Under the pieces are notes generated by a model that saw only the letters and a list, made by a program, of their open reading frames with translations, had not been told where the DNA came from and did no database searches. Positions 33,832-59,122 of a DNA stretch of 64,000 nucleotides are shown in pieces. Positions within the stretch are counted from its first letter, which is position 1. Each line of letters begins with the position of its first letter. The DNA is from Coprococcus eutactus (GTDB lineage: Bacteria; Bacillota; Clostridia; Lachnospirales; Lachnospiraceae): the NCBI RefSeq assembly GCF_025149915.1, contig NZ_CP102278.1, positions 1,844,001 to 1,908,000 on the forward strand, in the 5' to 3' direction. The position numbers and the translations under genes were made by a program.

Positions 33832-36800
33832 AACGCAATCCACGCTCCGGCAAACGGAGCGACAGAAGACCAGCATCAAGCCACGGAAGTACATCCAATT
33901 TCAATCAACGCTCTGACAAACGGAGCAACTGCAATAAAGAACTTGCAGATGACCTTATCGACAAATTTCAATCCACGCTCCGGCGAACGGAGCGACGATC
34001 AAGCTTATGACTTATGAGAGAGACACAGAATTTCAATCCACGCTCCGGCGAACGGAGCGACACCAACCATTCCTGCCATCTGTGCAGCAATCTGATGATT
34101 TCAATCCACGCTCCGGCGAACGGAGCGACATTGTATGACGTGCTTATTAAGATAAGACCAAACATTTCAATCCACGCTCCGGCGAACGGAGCGACCTGCA
34201 CAAACCGAGAGCCACGGAGCAAGAACGCAATTTCAATCCACGCTCCGGCGAACGGAGCGACAGCGTGGACTTACACTAAAGACGGTAAGAATACAGATTT
34301 CAATCCACGCTCCGGCGAACGGGGCGACCAGCATCCCATGTGTTAAGAAATCCAGTTATTGAAATTTCAATCCACGCTCCGGCGAACGGAGCGACGACTT
34401 TTATGCTTTTTCGTGGGTTTATGCTAATATTTCAATCCACGCTCCGGCGAACGGAGCAACGATATTTACCATTACAACAAACAGGATCTTCTAAAATTTC
34501 AATCCACGCTCCGGCGAACGGAGCGACTCGTTATAGTTTCAGTGTCAGAACGTTTAGGAAAATTTCAATCCACGCTCCGGCGAACGGAGCGACGTGCAGA
34601 GTAAAGCTATTTTTGGTGACTGTTATGTATTTCAATCCACGCTCCGGCGAACGGAGCGACCATACACAATCTTGGATGGAGCTGGTGTGACATGGGTATT
34701 TCAATCCACGCTCCGGCGAACGGAGCGACACAACATCCATTAAACAATTCTCAAGTGCATCTTATTTCAATCCACGCTCCGGCGAACGGAGCGACTAGCT
34801 GTGCCATAGTTCTGTGATGCCGCATTAGCATTTCAATCCACGCTCCGGCGAACGGAGCGACATCATGCCGGTGATAATCTCTATAGATATGAATATTTCA
34901 ATCCACGCTCCGGCGAACAGAGCGACTGGAAATACTCATCAGCCGTGTACCCGGCCTCAGCATTTCAATCCACGCTCCGGCGAACGGAGCGACCGTCTTC
35001 CGTCGTCTTAACTGTTGGAATATTTGTATTTCAATCCACGCTCCGGCGAACGGAGCGACTATGCCTTGTATTTTATATTCTCATCCTCATCAAATTTCAA
35101 TCCACGCTCCGGCGAACGGAGCGACTAACTCAAGAAAATCATAGCAGAAAAGGGGAAGAATTTCAATCCACGCTCCGGCGAACGGAGCGACTACATGTGA
35201 TTTCTACTATCAGCGCATTGAAACATTTCAATCCACGCTCCGGCGAACGGAGCGACTGTGGTATACCATTTATTTCCTCCTACAAAAAAATTTCAATCCA
35301 CGCTCCGGCGAACGGAGCGACGTGTCCACTTGGGCGGTTCATTCGCTTTGCCATATTTCAATCCACGCTCCGGCGAACGGAGCGACCTCCAGCTTATCAA
35401 AGAGTATAGAGAATTTAACATTTCAATCCACGCTCCGGCGAACGGAGCGACTTTAATAAATATGACGGTCTCCCGGTCTGGAACATTTCAATCCACGCTC
35501 CGGCGAACGGAGCGACTTATTCAGGCAGGTGAAAGCGGGCTTACAATTAAAATTTCAATCCACGCTCCGGCGAACGGAGCGACCCATAATCATGATCACA
35601 GTAATCAATTAAAGATATTTCAATCCACGCTCCGGCGAACGGAGCGACATTATGCAGGAAGTGCTTGACGGCACTAATGTGCGAAATTTCAATCCACGCT
35701 CCGGCGAACGGAGCGACCACATGAATATGGTCATTATTTCGATACTAAAGCAATTTCAATCCACGCTCCGGCGAACGGAGCGACGACGTACACAGATTAC
35801 TATTATGCGGATGAATTTAAATTTCAATCCACGCTCCGGCGAACGGAGCGACTTCTTCCAGTTACGACCTTTTTCCTGAGTTGGAGATTTCAATCCACGC
35901 TCCGGCGAACGGAGCGACACGTTGATTTTCCGTTATTTCCCATTCCGTACAAATTTCAATCCACGCTCCGGCGAACGGAGCGACTGCCTGTATTGCCATT
36001 CTATAAGCACTTTCAAAAATTTCAATCCACGCTCCGGCGAACGGAGCGACCTTTTTGCTGTGCCCTAGTGTGGACAAGCACACAATTTCAATCCACGCTC
36101 CGGCGAACGGAGCGACACAAGTTTTATTTCATCCCTGAATAATTCCTCCATTTCAATCCACGCTCCGGCGAACGGAGCGACGATTAACGCCATCTGCTGT
36201 GCTGAAATCAATATTGGAATTTCAATCCACGCTCCGGCGAACGGAGCGACGCTAGAGAAGTATCAGCATCTCCTATTATAATTATTTCAATCCACGCTCC
36301 GGCGAACGGAGCGACAAAAATGTGTAAATTACCTTACAATGTATATCAGTATTTCAATCCACGCTCCGGCGAACGGAGCGACTGTATAATTCCGGATGAT
36401 GTAAAAGCTCTGCTTTATTTCAATCCACGCTCCGGCGAACGGAGCGACATTCTTTATACAAAATATCAAGCTGTTCAATAAATTTCAATCCACGCTCCGG
36501 CGAACGGAGCGACCTACCCTTTTCGATATCTCCGCCCATCTTGATAGAATTTCAATCCACGCTCCGGCGAACGGAGCGACCGGGCGTACGCTGTGGCTCA
36601 CACATACACAAATTTCAATCCACGCTCCGGCGAACGGAGCGACCATTTCTCGCCTCCTTCACCCTGCAGATGTGCTATTTCAATCCACGCTCCGGCGAAC
36701 GGAGCGACAATTGTTACAAGCTCGGCCTTATTGTCCTTAAAATTTCAATCCACGCTCCGGCGAACGGAGCGACTTCTTGATCTTAAGCGCATTCTCATGC

Positions 36801-38693
36801 ATCATCAGATTTCAATCCACGCTCCGGCGAACGGAGCGACTTAATTCTCCGTCCTTATTTTCATCTTTATCATGCAATTTCAATCCACGCTCCGGCGAAC
36901 GGAGCGACTTTTTAAAATCTGTCAATATCCTTGATACTGTACATTTCAATCCACGCTCCGGCGAACGGAGCGACTCCAGAAGATGTACTATCACCATTAC
37001 CACCAGACATTTCAATCCACGCTCCGGCGAACGGAGCGACAATTTCCTTTGTCAAACGGACTCTCTTCATCAATATTTCAATCCACGCTCCGGCGAACGG
37101 AGCGACTAGCATAATCCCACTTAAAAGTTCTAACATCTGACATTTCAATCCACGCTCCGGCGAACGGAGCGACGCATTTCTGCCTCACCTATGGTCATTC
37201 CCTCACGATTTCAATCCACGCTCCGGCGAACGGAGCGACAGGCTATCAATGCTGACACTGTAGCTGGTATGCAATTTCAATCCACGCTCCGGCGAACGGA
37301 GCGACAGCCAAACACCGTTATATTGTCCCCTAAATCGGGATTTCAATCCACGCTCCGGCGAACGGAGCGACGTAGGTGAGGGTGATGAAGGTATCACCCG
37401 GACTATTTCAATCCACGCTCCGGCGAACGGAGCGACGGATTCAATCTGTAAGTGGTTCGGTATCACATCATTTCAATCCACGCTCCGGCGAACGGAGCGA
37501 CCAAAGGAACCCACTTTGGCATGGATTGTTTGAAAATTTCAATCCACGCTCCGGCGAACGGAGCGACAGGAATTTGTTAGGGTAAATGCTACAGATAACC
37601 TACAATTTCAATCCACGCTCCGGCGAACGGAGCGACCTTTGTCACAGTCAAAGCCAAGATCTTTAATGTATTTCAATCCACGCTCCGGCGAACGGAGCGA
37701 CGTTGAAAGATATAGTCGATTACTATTTTGATGACATTTCAATCCACGCTCCGGCGAACGGAGCGACGGTCACAATGTTGAATGGACCTTATTATTCATT
37801 CATTTCAATCCACGCTCCGGCGAACGGAGCGACGCGGAATTAAATGACGCGATGGCGCAAGTGGGCATTTCAATCCACGCTCCGGCGAACGGAGCGACTT
37901 ATTGCTCGGCCTGCTGCAAAAAACACACTGATATTTCAATCCACGCTCCGGCGAACGGAGCGACGATAATATCTCATGTTTTTATACCTCCTTAACAATA
38001 TTTCAATCCACGCTCCGGCGAACGGAGCGACCCTCAGTTGCTTTGACAATACAAAAATCAAAAGATTTCAATCCACGCTCCGGCGAACGGAGCGACACAT
38101 GCAGATGGGGCAAGACGCATATATGCAGAGCATTTCAATCCACGCTCCGGCGAACGGAGCGACATATCAGACAAAGCTAACCCGGTTTGAACTGCTAATT
38201 TCAATCCACGCTCCGGCGAACGGAGCGACGCAAAATCGGGTTATTTAGCAGTGCGCAATTATATTTCAATCCACGCTCCGGCGAACGGAGCGACGGTAAA
38301 CACTCTATAAACCGTCCTTATTACATTCCAATTTCAATCCACGCTCCGGCGAACGGAGCGACGCAAGCTCTATATAAAAATGACACCGCTTACAATATTT
38401 CAATCCACGCTCCGGCGAACGGAGCGACTTATTAACACAATAAAGACTTCCAGTGATCTGACATTTCAATCCACGCTCCGGCGAACGGAGCGACACCTGC
38501 ACTTGCACGCTTTTGCACTCTCACCTTATTTCAATCCACGCTCCGGCGAACGGAGCGACTATCATAACAAGTTGTAAGCCTTTTTAATCCATAATTTCAA
38601 TCCACGCTCCGGCGAACGGAGCGACGTAAAATCCGGGGAGATCACAATTGATGAGCTTGGCATTTCAATCCACGCTCCGGCGAACGGAGCGAC
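33832..38693 (-). CRISPR. Type I-C CRISPR array, about 74 repeats
   Basis: I count 74 copies of a 32-bp repeat at about 66-bp intervals (spacers about 33-36 bp). Read on the minus strand the repeat starts GTCGCTCCG, holds the palindrome GCTCCG/CGGAGC and ends GTGGATTGAAAT, the type I-C form. Transcription is therefore leftward from the leader beside cas2. The two leftmost repeats (33832 and 33898) are degenerate, as expected at the old, leader-distal end. Single-base variants also occur near 34317 (GGGGCGAC), 34450 (GAGCAAC) and 34915 (CAGAGC). A more decayed repeat may lie just left of 33832. No spacer was seen to match elsewhere in this window by eye. Confidence 0.98.
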
Positions 38694-38868: not shown

Positions 38869-39159
38869 TCAAAAAATTAATGGCTGATCAACATCTATCC
38901 CCTTATCACATCCTATATGATCAACTTTAGTTTGATATTTACTTCCCAAATAATAAAACCTGAGACTGTCCACTGTATCATCAATTATTTCAGACAACAA
39001 GGCTTTCAATTTAACGCTCTGTGCTTGGTCCACTATACATTCGAAAACTGAATTCTGTACTCGTCGGCCATAATTTTCACATTGTTTTGCAACCTTTCTC
39101 AATCTATTTTTTCCTGCAGATGTTTCCGTATTAACATCATAGGTTATCAATAATAACAT
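38869..39159 (-). CDS. cas2: CRISPR-associated endonuclease Cas2
   Basis: 96 residues, Cas1 partner in spacer integration. It shows the ferredoxin-like start MLLLITYDVNTETSAGKNRLRKVAKQCENYGRRVQNSVFEC with the conserved Asp after the first strand. I chose ATG 39159, preceded by GAGGTGATAAGA; the open frame runs to 39243. It starts ten bases after cas1. Confidence 0.96.
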   Translation of the reverse strand: MLLLITYDVNTETSAGKNRLRKVAKQCENYGRRVQNSVFECIVDQAQSVKLKALLSEIIDDTVDSLRFYYLGSKYQTKVDHIGCDKGIDVDQPLIF

Positions 39160-39169
39160 TCTTATCACC

Positions 39170-40201
39170 TCATTTCCACAAAAAAACAGGGTATCCATCA
39201 ATATCCCCTCGGAGATATCTTGCCAAAAGCATTGTCTGAACATATGGCACTATTCCCCACTCAACCTTTTCCTTCAAATATGGATGTGTAATTACTTCTT
39301 TCTTTTTATTTTGCCACTCCACCAATACCTTTTTTCTTGCATTATCACTTAGTAATACTGCCCCATTTTCTTTTTTAGAAAAATCCTTTCCTGTTATTAT
39401 CCTTTTATTTATAAGTGACAGAACAAACCTATCTGCATAAACCGCTCTAAATTCCTCAATTAAATCTAACGCCAACGAAGCCCTGCCAGGTCTATCCGTA
39501 TGTAAATACCCTATATACGGATCCAACCCTACAACTTCCAAGGCCGATGCAATCTGATTGGTCAATAATGTATAAACAAATGACAGCATAGCATTTATAT
39601 TATCTTGAGGAGGTCGTTTATTTCTTACTTGAAACACAAAATCTCTTTTTTGCTGTAATATAAGCTCATTGAACACCCCAAAATAAATACTTGCCGCCTC
39701 TCCCTCATATCCTCTTAATTCATCATTTGACTTAGCACCTCTTATTAATTCCAAGGAATTTTTTAAATGTAATGATGCGCGTTTCACCCGTTCCGCATCT
39801 ATCTGCATCGCATGATCCCTAATAGCCCTCTCCAAAACCCATCGTGCATTATATACTTTACCCAATATACAACTTTTGGAAATCTCTAGGCTTTTTTCTG
39901 CATCTAATGAGCTATCATATTGTTGTCTCCGCAAAATAACATTTCCCTTTACTTTTCCCGTTATACGAGCTAGAAATTTTCCTTGAGGAGTTACATAACA
40001 TAATGAAATATTCCGATCTGCACATGCGCCCATAAGTGCCGGACTTGTTCCTTTATACCCAAACACAACTATCCCATCCAAATTATGCAAAGGCAATCGG
40101 CCAATCTCTAGGCTATCTTGATATACTACAACAGTTTCTCCTTCTAACCCCAAATAACCATTTTCAGATGTTACATAAAGTGTATTTAATAATTTTTTCA
40201 T
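39170..40201 (-). CDS. cas1: CRISPR-associated integrase Cas1 (type I-C)
   Basis: 343 residues. Metal-binding residues are visible in RGYEGEAASIYF (Glu), GYLHTDRPGRASLALDLIEEFRA (His, Asp, Glu). The N-terminal beta domain (LLNTLYVTSENGYLGLEGETVVV) mediates dimer contact. It overlaps cas4 by four bases (ATGA). Confidence 0.97.
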   Translation of the reverse strand: MKKLLNTLYVTSENGYLGLEGETVVVYQDSLEIGRLPLHNLDGIVVFGYKGTSPALMGACADRNISLCYVTPQGKFLARITGKVKGNVILRRQQYDSSLDAEKSLEISKSCILGKVYNARWVLERAIRDHAMQIDAERVKRASLHLKNSLELIRGAKSNDELRGYEGEAASIYFGVFNELILQQKRDFVFQVRNKRPPQDNINAMLSFVYTLLTNQIASALEVVGLDPYIGYLHTDRPGRASLALDLIEEFRAVYADRFVLSLINKRIITGKDFSKKENGAVLLSDNARKKVLVEWQNKKKEVITHPYLKEKVEWGIVPYVQTMLLARYLRGDIDGYPVFLWK

Positions 40202-41774: not shown

Positions 41775-44197
<2,423 letters not shown>

Positions 44198-44216
44198 TTA
44201 AATATATTGTATTTCT

Positions 44217-44245
44217 ATAATAACGCATTGTGATACGTATAGCAA
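44217..44245 (-). promoter_or_regulatory. Promoter of the cas5c operon
   Basis: On the minus strand TTGCTA (44245-44240) and TATTAT (44222-44217) are 17 bp apart, placing the start near 44210, about 30 bases before the cas5c ATG. The -35 box lies inside the sequence matched by the small RNA encoded opposite. Confidence 0.6.
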
Positions 44246-44269
44246 TACAATATTTAAAACATTATTGAA
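44233..44269 (-). promoter_or_regulatory. Predicted Cascade target site (PAM TTC plus protospacer) in the cas5c promoter
   Basis: Minus strand: TTC at 44269-44267, then AATAATGTTTTAAATAT from 44266. Against the guide of the small RNA (AATAAGGTTTTCAATAT) positions 1-5, 7-11 and 13-17 are identical, with mismatches at 6 and 12; pairing is lost from 18 on. Type I guides tolerate mismatches at every sixth base. A 34-nt protospacer spans the cas5c -35 box, and the PAM and seed lie in the -35 of the small RNA promoter. Confidence 0.75.
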
Positions 44270-44293
44270 ATTTATTATATTTTTATATATACT
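44265..44293 (+). promoter_or_regulatory. Promoter of the CreR-like RNA
   Basis: TTGAAA (44265-44270) and TATACT (44288-44293) at 17-bp spacing predict a start near 44300, 12 bases before the conserved repeat end. No open reading frame follows on the plus strand, which supports an RNA product. Confidence 0.75.
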
Positions 44294-44299
44294 AAACGT

Positions 44300-44388
44300 G
44301 TCTGTTTTACAGTGGATTGAAATAATAAGGTTTTCAATATGATTACCTGATGCGGTGGATATTTATATACCCACCGCATTTCATTTAT
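44300..44388 (+). ncRNA. CreR-like cas-regulating RNA (degenerate mini-CRISPR)
   Basis: About 89 nt in the gap between cas3 and cas5c, antisense to the cas genes. In order: a small CTGT/ACAG hairpin where the repeat hairpin would sit; GTGGATTGAAAT (44312-44323), identical to the 3' end of the array repeat and containing the whole 11-nt handle left by Cas5c; a spacer-like segment from 44324 (AATAAGGTTTTCAATATG...); and a 9-bp terminator stem at 44350-44379 with a T-rich tail. The rest of the repeat is degraded, so it is not a normal array unit. The guide matches the cas5c promoter beside a TTC PAM with limited pairing, which suits binding without cleavage. CreR RNAs of this design are established in archaeal type I-B; the function here is inference. 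Confidence 0.8.
44350..44388 (+). terminator. Terminator of the CreR-like RNA
   Basis: Stem ATGCGGTGG (44350-44358) with CCACCGCAT (44371-44379), then TTCATTTATTT on the plus strand. On the minus strand no U-run follows, so the polarity favours a plus-strand transcript, although it may also stall cas3 transcription 10 bases after its stop. Confidence 0.75.
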
Positions 44389-46530
44389 TTATAAAAATAT
44401 CGCATCCCCCTCATCTACCAAGCAAACTAAACCACATTCTTCTGAGTAGTATTCCATTGATGTCAATTCATAAAAATCTCGCACATCATCTGAAACGAGG
44501 CGTATTATTCCTGCATCATACAATTTCTGAAATTCTGATTTTTCACCACAATAAACCTGAACACAAAACTGTCCTGCTTTTCGCATTCTTTCTTTTGATA
44601 TGCCTTTTAGCTTTATCTCATCCATCAACTCTTTTGCCTCATCTGTATTACCGACAAAAATTGTTGCCATATCCTGCTCAATTATTTTAAACTCTTTTCC
44701 GACCTTTGCATAATTATACTCAGGATGAACAAACTCACCTAAAATTTTCTTCTTATCAAGGCCATCGCCCCTGAAATGATACAGTCTCTTAAAATAATCT
44801 GATATACACTCTGGACTATCTACTATTTCATAATCACATAATACAGACTTAGCAACCTCAATCTGTTGTTTTTGATTTAACGGAATCCTGCAATTCTCAA
44901 TATCAAAAATATTAACTATACTCTCAGCTTGATTTCTTTTTCCCTCTCTATTGCATCTACCTGCAGCTTGTATAATAGAATCTATTCCTGCAATCTGACG
45001 ATACACATGCTTAAAGTCTAAATCCACCCCTGCCTCGACTAAACTTGTTGATACTACGACACATTTTTCTCCATTCTGCAAACACTTTCTTATTTTTTTC
45101 AAAACAATTTTTCTATGCAATGGGTACATATTTGTTGATAGATGAAACACTCCTATTCCACATAGTTCCATATAAATATCTTGAGCCATTCTCTTCGTAT
45201 TTACGATACACAAAGCACAATCTTCATCTTTTAGCATACTTGTCAATTTATCTCTCGATATTGTTCCGATGTTATTGTATTTAACTCTCTTAAAATATCC
45301 AAATTGTTCATGCATCCTTGGACATAGTTCCATAAATTGTGTGTTTTCTGGAAATAATGAACCTAACGCTGGCTGTGTCGCCGTGCATAATACTATACTT
45401 GATCTATATCTAATTACTAGTTCGCTAATCATATAAATACAAGGTTTCAGATAATCAGTCGGCAACATCTGTGCCTCATCAAATATAATGACACTATTTG
45501 CTATATTATGTAATTTCCTGCATTTTGAAGATTTATTTGAGAATAACGACTCAAAAAACTGAACATTCGTTGTAACTACAATGGGTTTATCCCAATTTTC
45601 ACTAGCCAATTGCATTGGCTCAAAATCTTCTCGTCCATCATAATCTACATTACAATGATTTTCCAAAACGTTCTGTTCTCCAAGTATGTCCCTGAACACC
45701 TGCGCATTCTGCTCTATAATACTGGTATATGGAATTACATATATTACACGATCCATATCATTTTCTACTGCATGTTTTAGTGCAAATGCAAGTGATGCAA
45801 TAGTCTTTCCTCCCCCAGTTGGAACTGTTAGTCTAAAATAGCCTTTTTCATTCTGCCCTTCATTTAAACAATGTTTTAATATTTCTGTTCTACGTCCATT
45901 TATCGATTCTGTATTATCATTTTTCAACCATCTACTAATATGTGTTTCAAGTTTGCTCAATAATATCTTTACATTTTCCCCTGAGTTTCTATTAACATCC
46001 CCATTTTTCATAAAATACTCAGTATCAAGGAAATCTGCATCAACCAAACACGAATAAATCATTCTAAGAAAAACGCTTAAAGGAAAATCTGCATCTGAAA
46101 GATTCTGTAATATAATTGGATCTGTTTTCAATTCAGGAATCTCTATTTCATATTTATACGAACTATAATCATATATCTTTTTCTTTTCACATCTATACCT
46201 TAAACTTGAATGAATAACTGTATTTCCATAATCTGGTAACCCAGCATGGTGTCCTGCTATACAATAGCTTAATAACTGATAATACCCCCCCAATTCCATA
46301 CATAGTTTTGCACCTGCTGTGGAATGATCGACTTTATCATCTGTGTTATTAATTATTTTATTTTGAAACTGCTTTGAATATTTACCAATGTCATGCAATA
46401 ATCCACAACAATATCCCCAGTCTGCTTTTCCAAACTTATCAGCAAATTGAGCTGTTAACCTTGCTGTTCCTATCAGATGATCCTTAACACTTTGTTCTGA
46501 AACACCATTTATATGTGCAATATATTTCAC
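44389..46530 (-). CDS. cas3: CRISPR-associated helicase-nuclease Cas3
   Basis: 713 residues. An N-terminal HD nuclease (His18 and the pair in GLLHDIGKYSKQF) is fused to a superfamily 2 helicase: VPTGGGKTIASLAFAL (Walker A), VIIFDEAQMLP (DEAQ box), CTATQPA (motif III) and AAGRCNREGKR (motif VI). It degrades DNA after Cascade binding. The start is GTG 46530 with AGGGGG upstream. It has its own promoter and is separated from the Cascade genes by the regulatory RNA locus. Confidence 0.96.
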   Translation of the reverse strand: MKYIAHINGVSEQSVKDHLIGTARLTAQFADKFGKADWGYCCGLLHDIGKYSKQFQNKIINNTDDKVDHSTAGAKLCMELGGYYQLLSYCIAGHHAGLPDYGNTVIHSSLRYRCEKKKIYDYSSYKYEIEIPELKTDPIILQNLSDADFPLSVFLRMIYSCLVDADFLDTEYFMKNGDVNRNSGENVKILLSKLETHISRWLKNDNTESINGRRTEILKHCLNEGQNEKGYFRLTVPTGGGKTIASLAFALKHAVENDMDRVIYVIPYTSIIEQNAQVFRDILGEQNVLENHCNVDYDGREDFEPMQLASENWDKPIVVTTNVQFFESLFSNKSSKCRKLHNIANSVIIFDEAQMLPTDYLKPCIYMISELVIRYRSSIVLCTATQPALGSLFPENTQFMELCPRMHEQFGYFKRVKYNNIGTISRDKLTSMLKDEDCALCIVNTKRMAQDIYMELCGIGVFHLSTNMYPLHRKIVLKKIRKCLQNGEKCVVVSTSLVEAGVDLDFKHVYRQIAGIDSIIQAAGRCNREGKRNQAESIVNIFDIENCRIPLNQKQQIEVAKSVLCDYEIVDSPECISDYFKRLYHFRGDGLDKKKILGEFVHPEYNYAKVGKEFKIIEQDMATIFVGNTDEAKELMDEIKLKGISKERMRKAGQFCVQVYCGEKSEFQKLYDAGIIRLVSDDVRDFYELTSMEYYSEECGLVCLVDEGDAIFL

Positions 46531-47627: not shown

Positions 47628-49934
47628 CTATCGGCCAAACTTTTCAAGAGCCGTCCCAATCTTCAGATTTCTCTCAGTTGCCATCTTGTCAAACTTTATG
47701 ACATAGCAGCCTATATCTGTCCGCATAGCTGTTATAGTGCCCTCTCCAAATACTTTATGCATCACACGGTCACCCACTGAAAGTTCCGTATCCGAAGGGC
47801 ATATCCTGGATTCATTTGCCGCTATGTAGCTCATAGCATCGTCCACCAGTCTTTTAGGGAGATCATGTGCATAGTCTATCACGTCACGGTCTATATTGAA
47901 GATGAATCTGGATGGATACCGGAAAGACTCATCATAGTTCAACCCCTCGGCATCACTGATATACAGAGCCTTCTCCGCTCTAGTGAATGCCACATACGCC
48001 ATTCGTCTTTCTTCCTCTAGGCGTTCCTCTGTATCCACATGCTTACTTGGAAATATCCCCTCATTCATCCCGCACACGAACACATAAGGGAATTCCAATC
48101 CCTTTGCCGTGTGAACTGTCATCATGGACACTGTCTCTTTGTCTTTTTCACGGTCATTGTTCGTGTAGAGCGCGATGCTCTGGAGATATTCCTCCAGGGT
48201 ATTCTCTTCACCTGATGTCTTCTCGTATTCATCTACAGACTGCTTGAATTCCGCCAGATTATCCAGACGCTCCTGCTCACCCGACTGTCTGAGCATCGCC
48301 TCATACCCGGTCTGATCCAGTACCTCCGTCACCAGATCTGACAGACTCTTTTCCTTATAGGTCTTCTTGAACGCCTCTATGGTATCCACAAATGCTGCAG
48401 CCCCAGTTGACTTGATCGTTTTATCCTCCAGAATGTCCAGGAGGCCGTTATACAGTGAACATCTGTGACTCTCCGCGTATGCCTTTACGAGAGCCATTCG
48501 TTTCTTGCCGAAGTTGCGCTTTGGCTCATTGATCACGCGGCGAAATGACAGATCGTCCGAATAGACTATCATTCTGAGATATGCAAGTACATCCTTTATC
48601 TCTTTTCTTTTATAAAACTCCATTCCACTGTACAGTGTATACGGAATCTTTGCCTTGATGAACGACTCCTCTATATTTCTCGATACAAAATGAGATCTGT
48701 ACAGCACCGCCATCTCGTTGTACGATGCACCTTCTGAAACCAGTCTCTGTATCTCCGAGGTCATCCACTGAGCCTCATCCCCGGTCGTCCTGGAATGTAT
48801 ATATATAGGTCTTCTGCCCGACTCCTTATACGCCTCAAGCCTGTGCGGAAGCCTCTTCTTGTTCTTCTCTATGAGCGAGTTGGACACAGCAAGTATCTCT
48901 GGTGTTGATCTGTAATTCATATCAAGGAATATGGTTCTGGTATTCTCATGTGTCTCGTCAAATTCAAGTATGTATTCTATCTGTGCCCCGCGCCATGTAT
49001 ATATGGTCTGATCCGGATCTCCCACTATGAACAGATTCCTGTGATATCCACTGAGAATCTCTGCCAGCGCATACTGACTGTTGCTCACATCCTGAAATTC
49101 ATCCACCATGACATACATCATCCGCTCCTGCCATTTGATCCGCTTCGTTTCATCTGTCTGAAGTATATACAATGCAATCGTTATGAGATCGTCATAGTCA
49201 AGCCCATACACCTTCTTCTGCTCATACAGATATCCTAGGAATACCTTATCCTCCACCTTCTCTGCCTTCTCATAGTCTGCAAGAAGTTTTTCGTTCCCTA
49301 TCTCCGCAAGATACGGTATATGCAGCATCTGACTTTTCAGGGCTGTTATATGATCTCTCGCAGAGTCAAATGTATATGTTCTCGACTGTATATGTGCATT
49401 CTCATACACAGTCTTGAGTATCTCCTCTGTATCTTCGTCATCCATAACAACGAAGTTCTGTGGGAAGTTGATCGCATGTATGTCTTCCCTCAGCAGCTTC
49501 ACACAGAATCCATGAAATGTACAGATATAGCCAGTATCACTGTCACCTATCATCTGTCTTATCCTCTTGCTCATCTCCCTGGCTGCCTTGTTCGTAAATG
49601 TGACACACAATATATTCGAAGTTGATATTCCCAGCTCATTGACAAGGTATGCATACCTATGAGTAAGCGCCTTCGTCTTGCCGGTCCCCGCACCTGCAAT
49701 GATCCTCACGTATCCTTCTGTGGTTGTAACAGCATCAAGCTGCCTCTCATTGAGTGTGCTCAGATAATTCTCTTTATCTTCCATTCTGTTATCTTTCATC
49801 CCGTTATCTTCCATCCTGTTATCTTGAATCCTGTTATCTTGAATCCTGTTATCTTCCATCCCACTATCTCCCATCCTGTTATCTATCATAAAATCTTTAA
49901 TATTATCTTTCTTATAATCTTCTCTAAAATCCAA
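47628..49934 (-). CDS. pcrA: PcrA/UvrD-type DNA helicase with repeat-rich N-terminus
   Basis: About 768 residues. SF1A 3'-5' helicase for repair and replication-fork processing: LNERQLDAVTTTEG (Q motif), IIAGAGTGKTKAL (Walker A), YVMVDEFQDVSNSQY (Walker B), GDPDQTIYTWRGA (motif III), MTVHTAKGLEFPYVFVCG (motif V) and YVAFTRAEKALYIS (motif VI). The C-terminal tail VGDRVMHKVFGEGTI is PcrA-like. Residues about 16-52 are tandem DNRM(E/Q)-type pentapeptides unusual for the family. The open frame begins at TTG 49934 without a convincing ribosome site, so the true start may be one of several ATGs between 49889 and 49790. Confidence 0.9.
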   Translation of the reverse strand: MDFREDYKKDNIKDFMIDNRMGDSGMEDNRIQDNRIQDNRMEDNGMKDNRMEDKENYLSTLNERQLDAVTTTEGYVRIIAGAGTGKTKALTHRYAYLVNELGISTSNILCVTFTNKAAREMSKRIRQMIGDSDTGYICTFHGFCVKLLREDIHAINFPQNFVVMDDEDTEEILKTVYENAHIQSRTYTFDSARDHITALKSQMLHIPYLAEIGNEKLLADYEKAEKVEDKVFLGYLYEQKKVYGLDYDDLITIALYILQTDETKRIKWQERMMYVMVDEFQDVSNSQYALAEILSGYHRNLFIVGDPDQTIYTWRGAQIEYILEFDETHENTRTIFLDMNYRSTPEILAVSNSLIEKNKKRLPHRLEAYKESGRRPIYIHSRTTGDEAQWMTSEIQRLVSEGASYNEMAVLYRSHFVSRNIEESFIKAKIPYTLYSGMEFYKRKEIKDVLAYLRMIVYSDDLSFRRVINEPKRNFGKKRMALVKAYAESHRCSLYNGLLDILEDKTIKSTGAAAFVDTIEAFKKTYKEKSLSDLVTEVLDQTGYEAMLRQSGEQERLDNLAEFKQSVDEYEKTSGEENTLEEYLQSIALYTNNDREKDKETVSMMTVHTAKGLEFPYVFVCGMNEGIFPSKHVDTEERLEEERRMAYVAFTRAEKALYISDAEGLNYDESFRYPSRFIFNIDRDVIDYAHDLPKRLVDDAMSYIAANESRICPSDTELSVGDRVMHKVFGEGTITAMRTDIGCYVIKFDKMATERNLKIGTALEKFGR
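49785..49890 (-). repeat. 15-bp coding tandem repeat at the helicase 5' end
   Basis: Seven or so in-frame copies of a 15-bp unit (plus strand TTATCTTCCATCCTG and variants) encoding DNRME/DNRIQ/DNGMK. Each methionine-bearing copy offers a potential start codon. Confidence 0.85.
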
Positions 49935-50124: not shown

Positions 50125-53100
50125 TTAATACTTTTTATATATCGCATTCTTTGGCGCTGCCACACCCTTTGCCTTAATCTTAGCCATATATGACTTATAG
50201 TATTTCTTTGGTATCTTGAATGTTATCTTTGACTTTGTACCCTTGAATGCATTCTTTGATACAGTCTTGAGTTTTGCCGAACCAACTTTGACAGTGGCAA
50301 GGCTCTTGCAGCCGCTGAATGCTGATGCACCTATAGTCTTAACATTTGCGCCAATTGAGACTGCTGTCATCTTGCTGCATCCGCCGAATGCACTCTCTCC
50401 TATGGTTGTCACCTTTCCGCCAACAGTCAGTGTCTTAAGTGATGTGCAGCCATAGAAAGCGGCCTTGCCTATGGTTTTAAGCTTATTATTTACCGGCATT
50501 GCTGTGAGCGACTTACATTTATAGAATGCATAACCACCTATGGCTGTAACATTCTTGAATGCCGGAATAGTCTTGAGTGCTGTACATCCGCTGAATGCAT
50601 ATGTTCCTACAGAGACAACATTTGCACCTCCAGCAACCTTGACAATACTCTTGTAGTCCTTGAATGCTTTGCTGCCTATAGCTGTAACTTTAAATTTCAC
50701 TCCGTCTATAGTTACAGTATCACTGATCGTAAGTATCTTGAACTTTCCATTGGTCTTGGCAACTGTTGTGCCTATAAGTCCTACAGTTCCCTTGCCCTTC
50801 AGATCAGCATTTGTAATCTTGTACTTGTATACTATGTTAGTTCCTGGCTGCTTTACTGCAAATACAGAATTCCTTACTATCTTGATCTGGAATGTCTCTG
50901 TGATAGTTCCTCTGTATTTTCCGATACCATTTATTGTAACCGTTGCAGTGCCATGTTTTTTATTGTTCGAATATGCTACCGTGTAATCAGTACCCTTTCT
51001 TAGAACCGTTCTGCCCGATGTAACTTTCAGATTCTTTAGGGTAATTGTGCTTCCAGTATATTTCTGAGGATCAAGTCCGGATACCTTTATCTTGTATTTT
51101 GGATTAGTGATATCCCTGCCAAGTGCCGGGATCGGCACAGTCTTCACATATCCGCAGACCTTACACTTATATACCTTGCTTCCGGCTGCTGTATCAGTAG
51201 GACTTGTCTTTATGCTTCCTGAGTCGAATGTATGCCTTGCCTTATTCTGGATATCCTTGCAGCTGCATTCCTTCCAGTGATATGTAGCATTGCTCTTGTA
51301 TGCATCGCCATAATCATGTACATGTTCTTTGATGATTTCAACCTGTACTGGGAATACCACACCTCTGTAAGCTCTGTTCCAACCCTCTACTCCTGACCAG
51401 TCATAGTTAGTTATATCAGCAGGCTTAAAGCACAGCTTGTATGTTCCGCCATCTTCAGCCTTTGTTGTTCTGTCTGTGTACCATGTGTAGATTCCATTCT
51501 CTGCCTCCGGAAGTACTATATCAGCCAGAGTGTCATTTTCTTTTGCTGTGAGCTTGTCTATAGCCTGTGTGAACTTAGCCTCAGCCGGCTTTATCTCAAC
51601 TGTGATCTCTATATGCTCTGCTCTTTCATATACATCCTCATCAGATGGCACAAATGTTGCAAGGAACTTCTTTGTTCCAACGTCGCCGACTGACTCATCA
51701 GCATTTTCCCAGATGAACATTCCGCCTTCTGCTTCTGGAATAACAGCCTTTCCTACAGTTTCTCCATATATAGCTGTCACTCCCTCAGGTACAGTGTATA
51801 CAGGATCCTGCTTTCTCACATATACCGCAAGCTTCACTGATATTCTGACACTGCCGTCCTCTAACTGCTCATACGTTCCTGAGGCAGTATCAAACTTGCT
51901 CCAGTCATAGTTGACTGTATCTTTCGGTACAAAGTATGCATCGTAATTGTCTTCGGATCCAGCCTTGCCAACCAACTGTGTGCTGTCTGCCCAGCTATAT
52001 ACACCAAGTACTGACTTTGGAAGTGCTACATCAGCAAGTGTTTTGCCTGCATATGCGGTTCCGGCCTTTGATGCAGCAAGTGTCGGGATACCCTTCTCTA
52101 TCTTCTCTATGGTAAGCGTGAATTCAGCTGTGGTCTGGTTCTGTCCTCTCACAATGATATTCACTGTCTGAGCCTCAGCAGAAGCCTTGACCGGAGTACC
52201 GTATATCTTGCCGCCTGACATCGCAAGTCCATCAGGAAGGGTCTGCCCCTTAGCAAGTGAGTATGCGACATAGCCGTTTTCAACATTCTCATCATTCTGA
52301 ACCTCGATCTTTGTGAGGTCATAGAGTGGATCAAACTTGCTAGTTGTCACTCCAACCTGTGCTGTAACCTTGTCCTCAGCCTTCGCAAGAGTTATATTGG
52401 TTGCTTCCTGCTTTGCCATATTGATCACAGCATGTGTCGGCTCATATGCCACTGTTCCGCGCCACTTGACATTGTTACTTGACGTTGCCTCATTCTGTGC
52501 TGAACCATATACCACAGAATCTATCTTCATTCCGTCTATCGGTTCGCCGTCAACTGTCACATAGAAATCCATATTTCCAGCTATGTATACATTTGTATCA
52601 CCGTCAATGCCTGACGTCTTCTGATAGTTAGCATTTGTTGCCGCTATGCTTATCTTTGCATCCTCACCCTTGAAGCAGTATGCCGGATACTCTGCATCAA
52701 CTTTATAGTACACACTGCTGTAATTTTTCAGCACATACTTAAGATTCGGAATCGTTGTTGTGAGTACCTTTCCAACATCCGAGAAGTTGTTATAATATGT
52801 CTCTTCCAGAGAACCATAATTTACTATGATTCCACTGTTGACCATATTTCCGAATGTAAATGTAGCAGCTTCACGGTTGATGAACATTGAAGAAGCATTG
52901 ATCCTTGTACTGTATGACCTGTCAGAAACCGTTGTGACGGTTCCATAGTTGTCAACTTTACCGCTGATACTTGATGCGCTGCTGTCACCAACGTACATAT
53001 ACTTCTTTGTATTCCAGATTCCATTGTTGACAAATGTTCCCTCTACATAAACATTGCCCTCTGAGGTCCATGTTCCGTTATTCTCAATATCTCCTTCGAT

Positions 53101-56100
53101 GACAGCATTTGCTGTATGCTTAATTGATGCACCCTCAGCAACTTTGATCTTTGAACCAGAAGTTACATTGAGGATATCAGTCTCAATGTTCTCATCAACA
53201 GTGTATGTACCGCCGAGGACAAGTTTATCATTGAGTTTTAAGAAGAGTGAGCCATTATGTGTCACCTGGAAATTCTCTGAAAGTCCTTTAACACTCGCAG
53301 TGGTATTGCCACTGACATCATTGAAATAAATATCATTTACCTCTCCGCTTGCAGCAAGAACGATCTTACCGCTCACGATACCTTCTGTAGCCGATCTTAC
53401 ATTTATATTGCGTATCTTATTGTTCGTATTGCCGTATACGAATGCTTTTGAACCATCATTTGAATTGGCGCAGCTTATATAACCTGATTTCAGCTCAGCA
53501 TTCAGATCTCCATCCACATTAGAACTATTTACAAATGTATTTGTTCTTCCTGCATACCATTCACCATTCAGAGTGTAATTTACATCTCCTGACACAGGTG
53601 TCCTGTGAACTCCGTAGAAGAAAGCGTACGTGCTTCTATACATCTTTGAACTATAGGCAAATGCCTCTCTTGTACTCAACACGCCTACCTCTGCATTTAC
53701 ATCTCCAGATACACTTCCTCCGCTTATGACATACAATTCTTCCTTACCTGTGCTTGAATAATTGTCGTCTGCATACATCATAGCTGTCTTTGTGAATGCA
53801 AAATTCATCGTCTGAACATCTGAATTATATGCGCCATAGGCCTTCTTATATATCTTTCCGCCTTCTGCAATGAAATTCACCGCAGCAGCATGTACATTAT
53901 ATGCACCATATATTTCTGTTCTTACAGTGCCGCCCAGCACCTTTACAGTAATATCACCCTCAACAGTTACATTTGCAGCTCCGGACTCGTTTGAACCTGC
54001 ACCATACAGGGAACCTACCGTACCGCTTCTGAGAACTATTGATATATCGCCAGTATATGCATTGTCTCCATCTGTATAACCATATATCTTGCACTTCGAC
54101 AGGTCGTAACTTGTCTCACCACCTATCTTAAGTGCTCTGTTGTTGTCTGCTATTCCGTCATGGTCTGCATCCATGTATATGGAAGACTTTGATGCATTTG
54201 ACGGATCAGCTATTATCACAACTGAACTTCCAGCAAGATTTATCTTACTTACGGATGCGTCAGTTACCACTTTGTTGATATCGGACACTTCCGTGCCGGC
54301 AGCCTTTACTGTAAACTTTACGTTTACATCAACGGATGTTCCATTTCTTCCTGTCACAACAAATGTCACATCTGTTTCACCTGTTTCGGATGTCTTGCCT
54401 GTTATCTTGCCATCAGCAAGCACAAGTCCCTCCGGAAGCTTTGATCCGCTCTTTACTCTGTACTGCATATCTGTACCGTATGATGAAGTGGTGTCTCCTG
54501 TCACATCAAGTGCTGTGAGATCATATACAGGTTCCTCGGCTGTATAGCTTGTATCTGCTACGATCACAGGATCAGCATATTTCTTTGTCACTGCGATCTG
54601 ATCTGCCACGTAATCAGCAGTTGCGCTCATAACTGTATTTGCTGTTGCGACCAGCGCCGATCCCGAATCTCCCTTTATTGGATCTCCGCCATTTATCGAT
54701 ACATATACTGTGTATCCCGGTACATCTGTATACTTTGCCGTGACTAAAGAATTGTTTCTTGCATATATCAGTCCCTCGTATTCCACTACCCTGCTCTGAG
54801 TTGGAATGGAAACCGAAGTTCCCTTCATATTCGTAGTACCGCGTTCAACATTGTAGTAGATTCCGGCCCACTCGCCTGCATCTACATCTTCTGCAAATTC
54901 TCCTGCCTTTACCCATGTTCCCTCATTTGAGAACTTGTCTGAAGGGCACTTGAATGTTCCTTTCTGATATACTTTTGCCCAGCTGTCTGATATCTTGACT
55001 TCATCTGTCTCAAACTCCGACTCTGCCCCTATAATAAGTACATTATTGTAACTCGTCATATACAGAGTATTTATCTTGACATCTCCATCAAACTGAGCAG
55101 ACGAATTTCTCGAGAATGAAAGACTGCCGGCGGTAATCGCAGCCGTTGCTGTAAGCTTAGATTTTTCATACATCCTCAGATATCCTGTGAGCTCAAGCGG
55201 AGCCTCCACTGATACTTCAGATTCATTGTCCAAATCAAAATCATTTGCAGCAAGCTTCTCTGTAACTGTATACTTCTTGTATATCATGATATTGTCTTTT
55301 GCTGTTCTGAGAAGCGCTCCTGTGTATGTTGATGTACTTCCACTTACCAAACCACCTGTGATTACTGCACCTGTGCAGTTCTCATAAGAGATCGTACCAT
55401 CTACCTGGGTATTTACAATCGCATATACCTCACCCACATTACCGCCTTTGATAACTACCGCAACCGCATCTCTTCCGCTGAAGCTCAGTTCTGAGTCAAC
55501 CGCACCATATATCTTCTTTACGCTTCCTCCCAGCATAGTTATCTTTACACTGCGCTTAAATTCGCTGTCATCAACTCCAACCACAGTGTATTCTGACAGG
55601 TCTCCGCTGACTAATGGTGTCTTGTTGTCAGCCTGTCCATCCTTGTTAGAATCGATATAGATCTCTGTGATCACAGGACTTTCAGCCCCTGTTTCATCCG
55701 ACGAAGCTTCCGCACTGTTCTCTGCAGCCTGCAATACAACTGATGTTCCATTCAGACTTATCTGTTTATTCTCTTCATCGACTGTTATACGTCCGTCTGT
55801 ATTGTCCTGTATCTTCTGCTCTTTCGAAACAACAACATTTAGCGTGATCTGTGTCCTTGTTCCATTCTTTCCTGTTATATAGATTACTGCTTTCTTTCCA
55901 TCCTCATATGCCGAGGTCGGTGTTCCAATTATAAGACCGCCATCAAGCTCAAGCCCCTCCGGAAGTATATAATCCTTGTCCATCTCATAGGTAACTTTGC
56001 CCTCTTTGCCATCATTCAGGATCACAACATCCGACATATCATACAGAGGTTTTTCTGCTGTGTATTTCTGACCGAGCACAGCTGAAGGATCTGACACTGT

Positions 56101-58944: not shown

Positions 58945-59122
58945 CAATTACCCTCCCTGATAAAACTTTTGTGACCCTTCGTGATACATCTGTATGCTAT
59001 ATTTTGTGCACTATAACACAAAAAGTCCTGTGAATATGTTAGTTTTTGCCACTTTAACCATTCTATCACAGCAAAGTTGCAAATACTATCACCAAATTCA
59101 CAAGACTTTTTTATGCATATTT

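What the first reader, a model, noticed from the sequence alone, without database searches (positions are those of the whole stretch)
44300..44388. CreR-like cas-regulating RNA hidden between cas3 and cas5c of a type I-C system
The sequence shows a near-consensus plus-strand promoter (TTGAAA, 17 bp, TATACT). It is followed by a repeat fragment whose last 12 bases equal the array repeat end, a spacer-like segment and a terminator with plus-strand polarity. The conserved part is exactly the 5' handle needed to load into Cascade, while the rest of the repeat has decayed, which is what selection for a regulatory guide rather than an array would leave. Cas-regulating RNAs are established in archaeal type I-B; I infer an equivalent here.
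Basis: partly seen in the sequence, partly recalled or inferred. Interest (0 to 1): 0.95.

Follow-up and report, generated by a model that had tools for sequence, protein, structure and literature searches.

The report
CRISPR guide RNA silencing its own genes
Between two genes of a bacterial type I-C CRISPR system sits a tiny crRNA-like stretch whose guide matches a site beside the neighbouring cas gene, and in dozens of related loci guide and site have changed together, so the CRISPR complex is predicted to switch off its own production; this would extend a self-regulation known from other CRISPR types to one of the commonest.

Summary
The plus strand of the 209-nt cas3-cas5c gap carries a predicted promoter (44265-44293), an I-C crRNA handle (44313-44323), a ~25-nt guide and a terminator-like hairpin. 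It is unique in the 3.11-Mb genome and covers the predicted cas5c -35.
Relatives yield 42 distinct elements, each with a TTC site matching at >=10/15 positions (29% of swapped guides reach that); >=9 leading matches: 36/42 own, 24/1722 swapped. In 18 disjoint pairs, 29 of 30 seed differences between guides are mirrored in the targets, 0 of 16 flipped ones. The repeat hairpin is rebuilt, not just decayed. In 21 of 24 relatives with a DUF3990 pair between cas3 and cas5c the element is present, its target usually just before that pair. Best reading: a type I-C CreR repressing the Cascade operon. Transcription, loading and repression are untested.

The parts
44265..44293 (+). predicted creR promoter: -35 TTGAAA (44265-44270), 17 nt, -10 TATACT (44288-44293); predicted start about 44300
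   Evidence: consensus scan, 10 of 12 matches; similar TTGAA/TATACT motifs stand upstream of many elements in relatives (listing; a promoter-like pair found mechanically in 38 of 42, some weak or oddly placed)
44302..44312 (+). mini stem-loop CTGT-TTT-ACAG flush with the handle, in place of the array repeat hairpin
   Evidence: 34 of 42 elements have a flush stem of >=4 bp with 16 distinct stem sequences; 17% of shuffled flanks (1426/8400); 6-13 of 42 when shifted by 1-3 nt. The lone RNA's MFE fold does not show it
44313..44323 (+). crRNA 5' handle TGGATTGAAAT, identical to the array repeat end
   Evidence: only plus-strand copy; 72 array copies on minus. That the I-C handle is 11 nt is recalled
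44324..44348 (+). guide AATAAGGTTTTCAATATGATTACCT
   Evidence: matches target at positions 1-5, 7-11, 13-17; mismatches at 6, 12, 18
44349..44380 (+). terminator-like hairpin of the small RNA
   Evidence: predicted fold; strict terminator scan negative; GC-rich hairpin-like sequences follow many guides in relatives (by eye, listing)
44267..44269 (-). TTC PAM, inside the predicted creR -35
   Evidence: no PAM was required; TTC is a tested I-C PAM in Xanthomonas (PMC8406640, passages)
44233..44266 (-). protospacer of the guide (34 nt taken as footprint)
   Evidence: 15/15 leading non-flipped matches, unique in the genome
44217..44245 (-). predicted cas5c operon promoter: -35 TTGCTA (44245-44240), 17 nt, -10 TATTAT (44222-44217)
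   Evidence: consensus scan, 9 of 12; -35 lies inside the protospacer
43517..44179 (-). cas5c, first gene of the predicted target operon
   Evidence: TIGR01876 E 1.7e-54
41775..43520 (-). cas8c
   Evidence: TIGR01863
40863..41774 (-). cas7
   Evidence: TIGR02589
40198..40863 (-). cas4
   Evidence: TIGR00372
39170..40201 (-). cas1
   Evidence: TIGR03640
44389..46530 (-). cas3, upstream of the gap
   Evidence: cas3 core and HD models; PADLOC Cas3c
33965..38693 (-). I-C CRISPR array, 72 repeat ends, 69 perfect 32-nt repeats

Best explanation
The plus-strand element at 44300-44391 is a predicted CreR-type RNA of a type I-C system: it carries the array's 5' handle and a guide that matches a TTC-flanked site at the predicted cas5c promoter, and it would load into I-C Cascade to repress the cas5c-cas8c-cas7-cas4-cas1 operon. 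Shown by sequence: handle, guide, PAM, target, the 6-nt mismatch rhythm and guide-target co-change across relatives. Predicted: both promoters, the hairpins and the RNA start. Inferred steps: the RNA is made from about 44300; Cas5c cuts after the mini-hairpin as it does in array repeats; Cascade with this guide forms an R-loop of about 17 positions from 44266 downwards; this match is too short to trigger Cas3 cutting but covers the cas5c -35, and because the PAM lies inside the element's own -35 it should also damp the small RNA itself. Cascade would then be held at a set level, and the brake would ease when array crRNAs occupy Cascade or an anti-CRISPR disables it.
For: Target is unique in the genome and not reached by 100,000 guide shuffles. 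With no PAM required, the best site had TTC in 20 of 21 loci. With TTC required, 42 of 42 distinct antisense elements from 168 regions of 104 loci have a site with >=10/15 non-flipped matches (29% of swapped and 11% of shuffled guides also reach 10); >=9 leading matches: own 36/42, swapped 24/1722, shuffled 2/1680. The 73 other handle-like sites in those regions, 40 of them array repeats, reach 10/15 in 0 of 73. Mismatches per guide position over the 42: 0 at 1-5, 33 at 6, 1/4/1/1/7 at 7-11, 35 at 12, 33 at 18; 6+12 versus 5, 7, 11, 13: 68/84 versus 20/168. Co-change in 18 disjoint pairs: 29/30 seed differences, 0/16 flipped. All 8 sites on the creR strand overlap the -10 of the mechanically best cas-sense promoter. 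Unbiased scan of 80 loci plus 16 kb of the window: TTGAAAY 35 hits in 1412 sites (3 of them array or chance-like: L080, L087, L102), 12 control motifs 16 in 3937.
Against: No transcript, Cascade binding or repression data. The element is absent from many I-C loci: 0 of 23 compact cas3-cas5c gaps (2 have it upstream of cas3), missing in 9 of 27 wider gaps without DUF3990 (one of these, L124, has the same gap as L122, which carries it) and 3 of 24 with DUF3990; outside the family only 2 of 101 upstream regions have it (my count). The lone RNA's MFE fold pairs the handle with the 5' end instead of forming the mini-hairpin. The terminator fails a strict scan. The predicted cas5c promoter is only 9 of 12; the mechanical call puts the top sense promoter's -35 under the target in 17 of 34 sense-type elements (21 of 34 for -35 or -10). 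Loci are related and guides resemble each other, so shuffle and Fisher figures overstate independence. 6 of 42 have fewer than 9 leading matches.
Confidence: 0.88

Rival explanations
1. A dead solitary repeat-spacer from an old array, whose match to the promoter comes from local sequence duplication.
For: Only one handle copy, short guide, no second exact repeat.
Against: 42 loci with different guides keep the handle and a matching site, many with promoter and hairpins; mismatches fall on every sixth base and 29/30 seed changes are mirrored in the target against 0/16 flipped ones, which duplication and drift would not give.
Confidence: 0.03
2. A CreA-type antitoxin RNA that keeps a toxin silent (CreTA or CrePA), with cas repression a side effect.
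For: In 21 of 24 DUF3990-bearing loci the element is present, and in 20 of those 21 its target lies 66-205 nt before the DUF3990 gene (2078 nt in L052); in L047 the pair matches PADLOC candidate defence models PDC-M10A/B, and DUF3990 is listed in the Pfam ADP-ribosyltransferase clan (PMC7955679, passage).
Against: In the window about 30 nt separate the predicted cas5c transcript start from the ATG, leaving no room for a toxin gene, and the genome has no DUF3990 match. Toxicity of the pair is unknown.
Confidence: 0.06
3. The RNA acts on mRNA by antisense pairing or on the array/adaptation step, not through Cascade at DNA.
For: It would be transcribed opposite to the cas genes and end near the cas3 stop codon (44389).
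Against: A TTC PAM flanks the best site in 20 of 21 loci even when no PAM was asked for, and the sixth-base rhythm is that of a Cas7 filament (I-B structure, PMC11096372, passage); antisense pairing needs neither.
Confidence: 0.03

Closest known systems
CreR cas-regulating RNAs (types I-B, I-E, V-A)
   Same: crRNA-like guide beside cas genes, partial match to a cas promoter, autorepression of the effector (PMC13131331 and PMC12737573, passages)
   Different: Subtype I-C; one shortened repeat with its own mini-hairpin and a terminator-like hairpin instead of a second exact repeat; the PAM sits inside the small RNA's own predicted -35 (8 of 42 elements); in many relatives the target stands before a DUF3990 pair that precedes cas5c
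CreTA, type I-F in Acinetobacter
   Same: CreA guide pairs with its target except at the 6th, 11th and 18th bases (PMC10097628, passages), much like 6, 12, 18 here
   Different: Its target drives an RNA toxin; here it lies at cas5c
CrePA
   Same: Cascade guided by CreA represses a protein toxin gene (PMC12737573, section 10); DUF3990-bearing relatives could work like this
   Different: CreP there typically has a KilA-N domain; the relatives carry DUF3990; the window's genome has no DUF3990 match
Racr, phage solitary repeat RNAs
   Same: Solitary repeat-like RNAs that act on CRISPR-Cas (PMC10651486, abstract in the listing)
   Different: Virus-encoded inhibitors; here a chromosomal guide with a matched cas target

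Membership tests
CreR | crRNA-like RNA carrying the subtype's own handle, outside the main array | tested here: met
   exact 12-nt match at 44312-44323, 72 array copies elsewhere; sequence only, RNA not seen
CreR | own promoter, placed beside cas genes | tested here: met
   predicted promoter 44265-44293, between cas3 and cas5c; similar motifs in relatives
CreR | PAM plus partial complementarity to a cas promoter | tested here: met
   the promoter itself is a prediction
CreR | RNA loads into the effector and represses cas transcription | not testable with these tools
   needs RNA-seq, pull-down and reporter
CreR | repression eased by array crRNAs or anti-CRISPRs | not testable with these tools
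   experiment needed
CreTA / CrePA | toxin gene driven by the target promoter | tested here: not met
   short predicted leader before cas5c; no DUF3990 match in the genome. In relatives with DUF3990 the question stays open
Canonical mini-CRISPR | spacer between two repeats | tested here: not met
   single plus-strand copy of GGATTGAAAT; a strongly degenerate second repeat is not excluded
Type I-C CRISPR-Cas | cas3, cas5c, cas8c, cas7, cas4, cas1 with I-C array | tested here: met
   cas2 not tested (one search failed)

The most novel reading that the evidence does not exclude
Type I-C systems of this bacterial family share an RNA-guided master switch: one Cascade-bound guide site sets Cascade levels and the guide RNA's own supply, and in many relatives the same site also holds back an embedded DUF3990 (ADP-ribosyltransferase-clan) pair, so that disabling Cascade releases new Cascade and a second defence together. 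The window shows the form without that pair.
Probability: 0.4. Interest if true: 0.87.

Novelty: new variant of a known kind. Interest (0 to 1): 0.74.

Why it matters
[quoted passage not shown] Comparative evidence here ties guide, PAM and cas promoter region together at single-base resolution and gives dozens of natural guide-target pairs for testing. If right, I-C effectors monitor their own loading state, anti-CRISPR inhibition would trigger more Cascade, and I-C editing or CRISPRi tools taken from such loci should keep or remove this element on purpose. The DUF3990 variant would link the same sensor to a second defence.

Tried and rejected
Rfam: no family reached its gathering score; the three sub-threshold matches (SpF39, mir-4536 twice) were taken as chance. 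Other targets: no other site with >=8 leading non-flipped matches in the window besides the guide itself, and the seed pattern once in the genome; weaker genome targets were not searched. Loci lacking the element were searched with a relaxed handle (>=6/11); nothing convincing except L124, whose gap equals that of L122. Wider taxa: 119 further upstream regions gave 535 handle-like sites and 7 with a target. By my count regions are from the window's own family and 101 from others. These regions reach only about 1.5-1.7 kb before cas5c (a few less), and at most 30 loci were kept per search, with 60 more fetched by hand. The first unbiased guide scan was swamped by arrays and only its class counts were used. 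Mechanical promoter calls were noisy for AT-rich gaps. NCBIfam had no model for the DUF3990 pair of L047. A homologue search of the partner protein gave 2580 relatives; none of the 120 listed had a Pfam domain.

Papers: the primary CreR paper did not appear in the held library (one search returned three reviews), so whether it or its supplement lists I-C candidates could not be checked. Searches behind the statement that I found no I-C CreR in print: (listings, plus passages of the papers named in this report).

Full report
The locus. The window holds a type I-C system on the minus strand: cas3 (44389-46530), then cas5c, cas8c, cas7, cas4 and cas1, an ORF in the place of cas2 (38869-39243, not tested), and an array with 72 repeat ends of which 69 repeats are perfect. 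Between cas3 and cas5c lie 209 nt with 25% G+C.

The observation. On the plus strand of that gap the promoter-like pair TTGAAA-17-TATACT (44265-44293) scores 10 of 12; the stretch 44100-44500 has 6 such sites against 2.7 expected, this being the best. The 12 bases GTGGATTGAAAT at 44312-44323 are the array repeat's 3' end and occur nowhere else on the plus strand of the window, nor on the minus strand outside the array. In the D. vulgaris I-C structure Cas5c and Cas7 clamp the crRNA 5' handle (PMC7684278, passages); its 11-nt length is recalled. A strong hairpin follows at 44349-44380, though the strict terminator scan finds none. So the description is right; the promoter lies just before the given coordinates.

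The guide from 44324 was compared with every position of the window, with no PAM required. One site stood out: minus strand, PAM TTC at 44269-44267, protospacer from 44266 downwards, matching positions 1-5, 7-11 and 13-17, with mismatches at 6, 12 and 18. In type I Cascades each Cas7 holds six crRNA bases with the sixth flipped out (shown for I-B in PMC11096372, passage; that I-C does the same is recalled). TTC is a tested I-C PAM in Xanthomonas (PMC8406640, passages). TTC plus the first 11 positions (position 6 free) occurs once in the 3.11-Mb genome (the longer pattern also once). Of 100,000 shuffles of the guide none reached 15/15 at the gap's five TTC sites. The site covers the predicted cas5c -35 (44245-44240), and its PAM lies inside the element's own predicted -35.

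Relatives. Cas5c searches gave loci mostly from the window's family in the unnamed set and from contigs named Blautia, Roseburia, Mediterraneibacter, Lachnospiraceae and the like, with a few other names (for example L122, Phascolarctobacterium); some are the same contigs as unnamed hits and were removed by identical sequence. A first look at 105 distinct cas5c upstream stretches found 21 with an antisense handle; with no PAM required, the best site by leading matches was TTC-flanked in 20 of 21 (L086 is the exception). In 168 regions of 104 loci there were 115 handle-like sites. I kept the 42 antisense ones with the core handle and dropped 73: 9 looser antisense sites and 64 on the sense strand, 40 of these array repeats. 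With TTC required, 42 of 42 kept elements have a site with at least 10 of 15 non-flipped matches, against 0 of 73 dropped ones. That threshold alone is not strict: 29% of guides swapped between loci and 11% of shuffled ones reach it, as the guides resemble each other. Leading matches of 9 or more separate better: 36 of 42 own, 24 of 1722 swapped, 2 of 1680 shuffled.

The rhythm. Sites were chosen by all 18 positions weighted alike, yet mismatches over the 42 number 0 at positions 1-5, 33 at 6, 1, 4, 1, 1, 7 at 7-11, 35 at 12, 12, 8, 11, 8, 17 at 13-17, and 33 at 18; beyond that they are near chance. Positions 6 and 12 against 5, 7, 11 and 13: 68 of 84 against 20 of 168 (Fisher p 8e-28, not corrected for relatedness).

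Guide and target change together. Among 18 disjoint pairs of elements with similar guides, 29 of 30 differences at non-flipped positions 1-11 are mirrored in the target, against 0 of 16 at flipped positions and 8 of 21 at 13-17. Because the target is picked as best match, some mirroring is built in; the flipped positions are the internal control. This is what R-loop formation by a type I Cascade would select.

Architecture. The aligned listing shows, in many elements, a TTGAA-like -35, a TATACT-like -10, a short hairpin of GTCAGG..CCTG type flush with the handle, the handle, a guide of roughly 25-30 nt, and a GC-rich hairpin (read by eye). A flush stem of at least 4 bp is found in 34 of 42, with 16 different stem sequences; 17% of shuffled flanks and 6-13 of 42 shifted frames have one. 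So the repeat's hairpin is replaced by a smaller one, not just lost. In isolation the window's RNA is predicted to pair otherwise.

Where the guide points. 34 of 42 targets have the PAM on the cas-sense strand; 8 of 42 are on the opposite strand and all 8 cover the -10 of the mechanically best sense promoter. For the 34, the best promoter's -35 is covered in 17 and -35 or -10 in 21. In 8 of 42 the PAM lies within the element's own predicted -35, as in the window.

Gap classes (with; 80 named loci plus the window). Loci with a DUF3990 gene between cas3 and cas5c: 21 of 24 have the element (L058 holds only a partial DUF3990 match). Wider gaps (>=140 nt) without it: 18 of 27 (19 if L124, whose gap equals that of L122, is counted; the 18 include L090, whose handle ends in A and is outside the 42). 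Compact gaps: 0 of 23, but 2 of 23 have it upstream of cas3, with the target about 110 nt (L110) and 506 nt (L098) before the cas3 open frame. Contigs lacking cas3: 0 of 7, six of them with 402 nt or less before the first gene examined. In 20 of the 21 DUF3990 loci with the element the target lies 66-205 nt before the DUF3990 gene; in L052 it is 2078 nt away. DUF3990 was confirmed by Pfam in L047 and L061 and by BLAST to L047 in the others; in L047 the two proteins match PADLOC candidate defence models PDC-M10A and PDC-M10B. DUF3990 is listed in the Pfam ADP-ribosyltransferase clan (PMC7955679, passage). The window's genome has no DUF3990 match.

Breadth. In 119 further upstream regions from order and phylum samples (18 from the window's family, 101 from others by my count), 7 of 535 handle-like sites had a target: two repeats of known loci, one likely chance, two new in the family (L152, L234) and two in other families (L164, L173) (reversed and permuted controls 1 of 361 and 0 of 248). 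L164 mismatches at 6, 10 and 12, L173 at 6, 12 and 16-18. The element is thus common in this family and rare in the sampled loci outside it.

Mechanism. The most likely reading is autorepression: the RNA loads into I-C Cascade, whose R-loop blocks the cas5c promoter. Pairing stops near position 17; in the Xanthomonas I-C system at least 27 matching bases are needed for interference (PMC8406640, passages), so cutting is not expected. Array crRNAs would compete for Cascade and anti-CRISPRs would disable it; both would ease the brake, as reviewed for CreR (PMC12737573, passages). cas3 has a separate upstream TATAAT sequence (read by eye) and might escape this control. Everything in this paragraph about the window is inference.

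Novelty. One review passage names I-B, I-E and V-A for CreR; another speaks broadly of type I and V-A. I found no I-C CreR in the papers searched, but the primary paper was not available, so priority is not settled. I rate it a new variant of a known kind.

Noticed in passing
L047:5108-5996 and 23 other loci with cas3 on the same contig: A DUF3990 gene, with a partner gene, sits inside the I-C cas locus between cas3 and cas5c (in L047 the pair matches PADLOC PDC-M10A/B), usually just behind the CreR target site.
   Followed up: partly
L098, L110: In two compact cas3-cas5c loci the element and its target sit upstream of cas3 (about 110 nt before the cas3 frame in L110, 506 nt in L098), so the guide may follow the operon's first promoter.
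   Followed up: partly
L164, L173: CreR-like elements in two other families of the same phylum, with mismatches again at guide positions 6 and 12.
   Followed up: partly
L072 (cas3-cas5c gap): A small CRISPR array (5 like repeats) lies between cas3 and cas5c where others carry the element.
   Followed up: no
window 49744-49899: 15-nt tandem repeats encode an N-terminal repeat (NRIQD/NRMED type) of a long minus-strand ORF, 47628-49934.
   Followed up: no
window 50125-58947: A single minus-strand ORF of 2940 aa with internal repeats, perhaps a large surface or secreted protein (guess from sequence, not tested).
   Followed up: no
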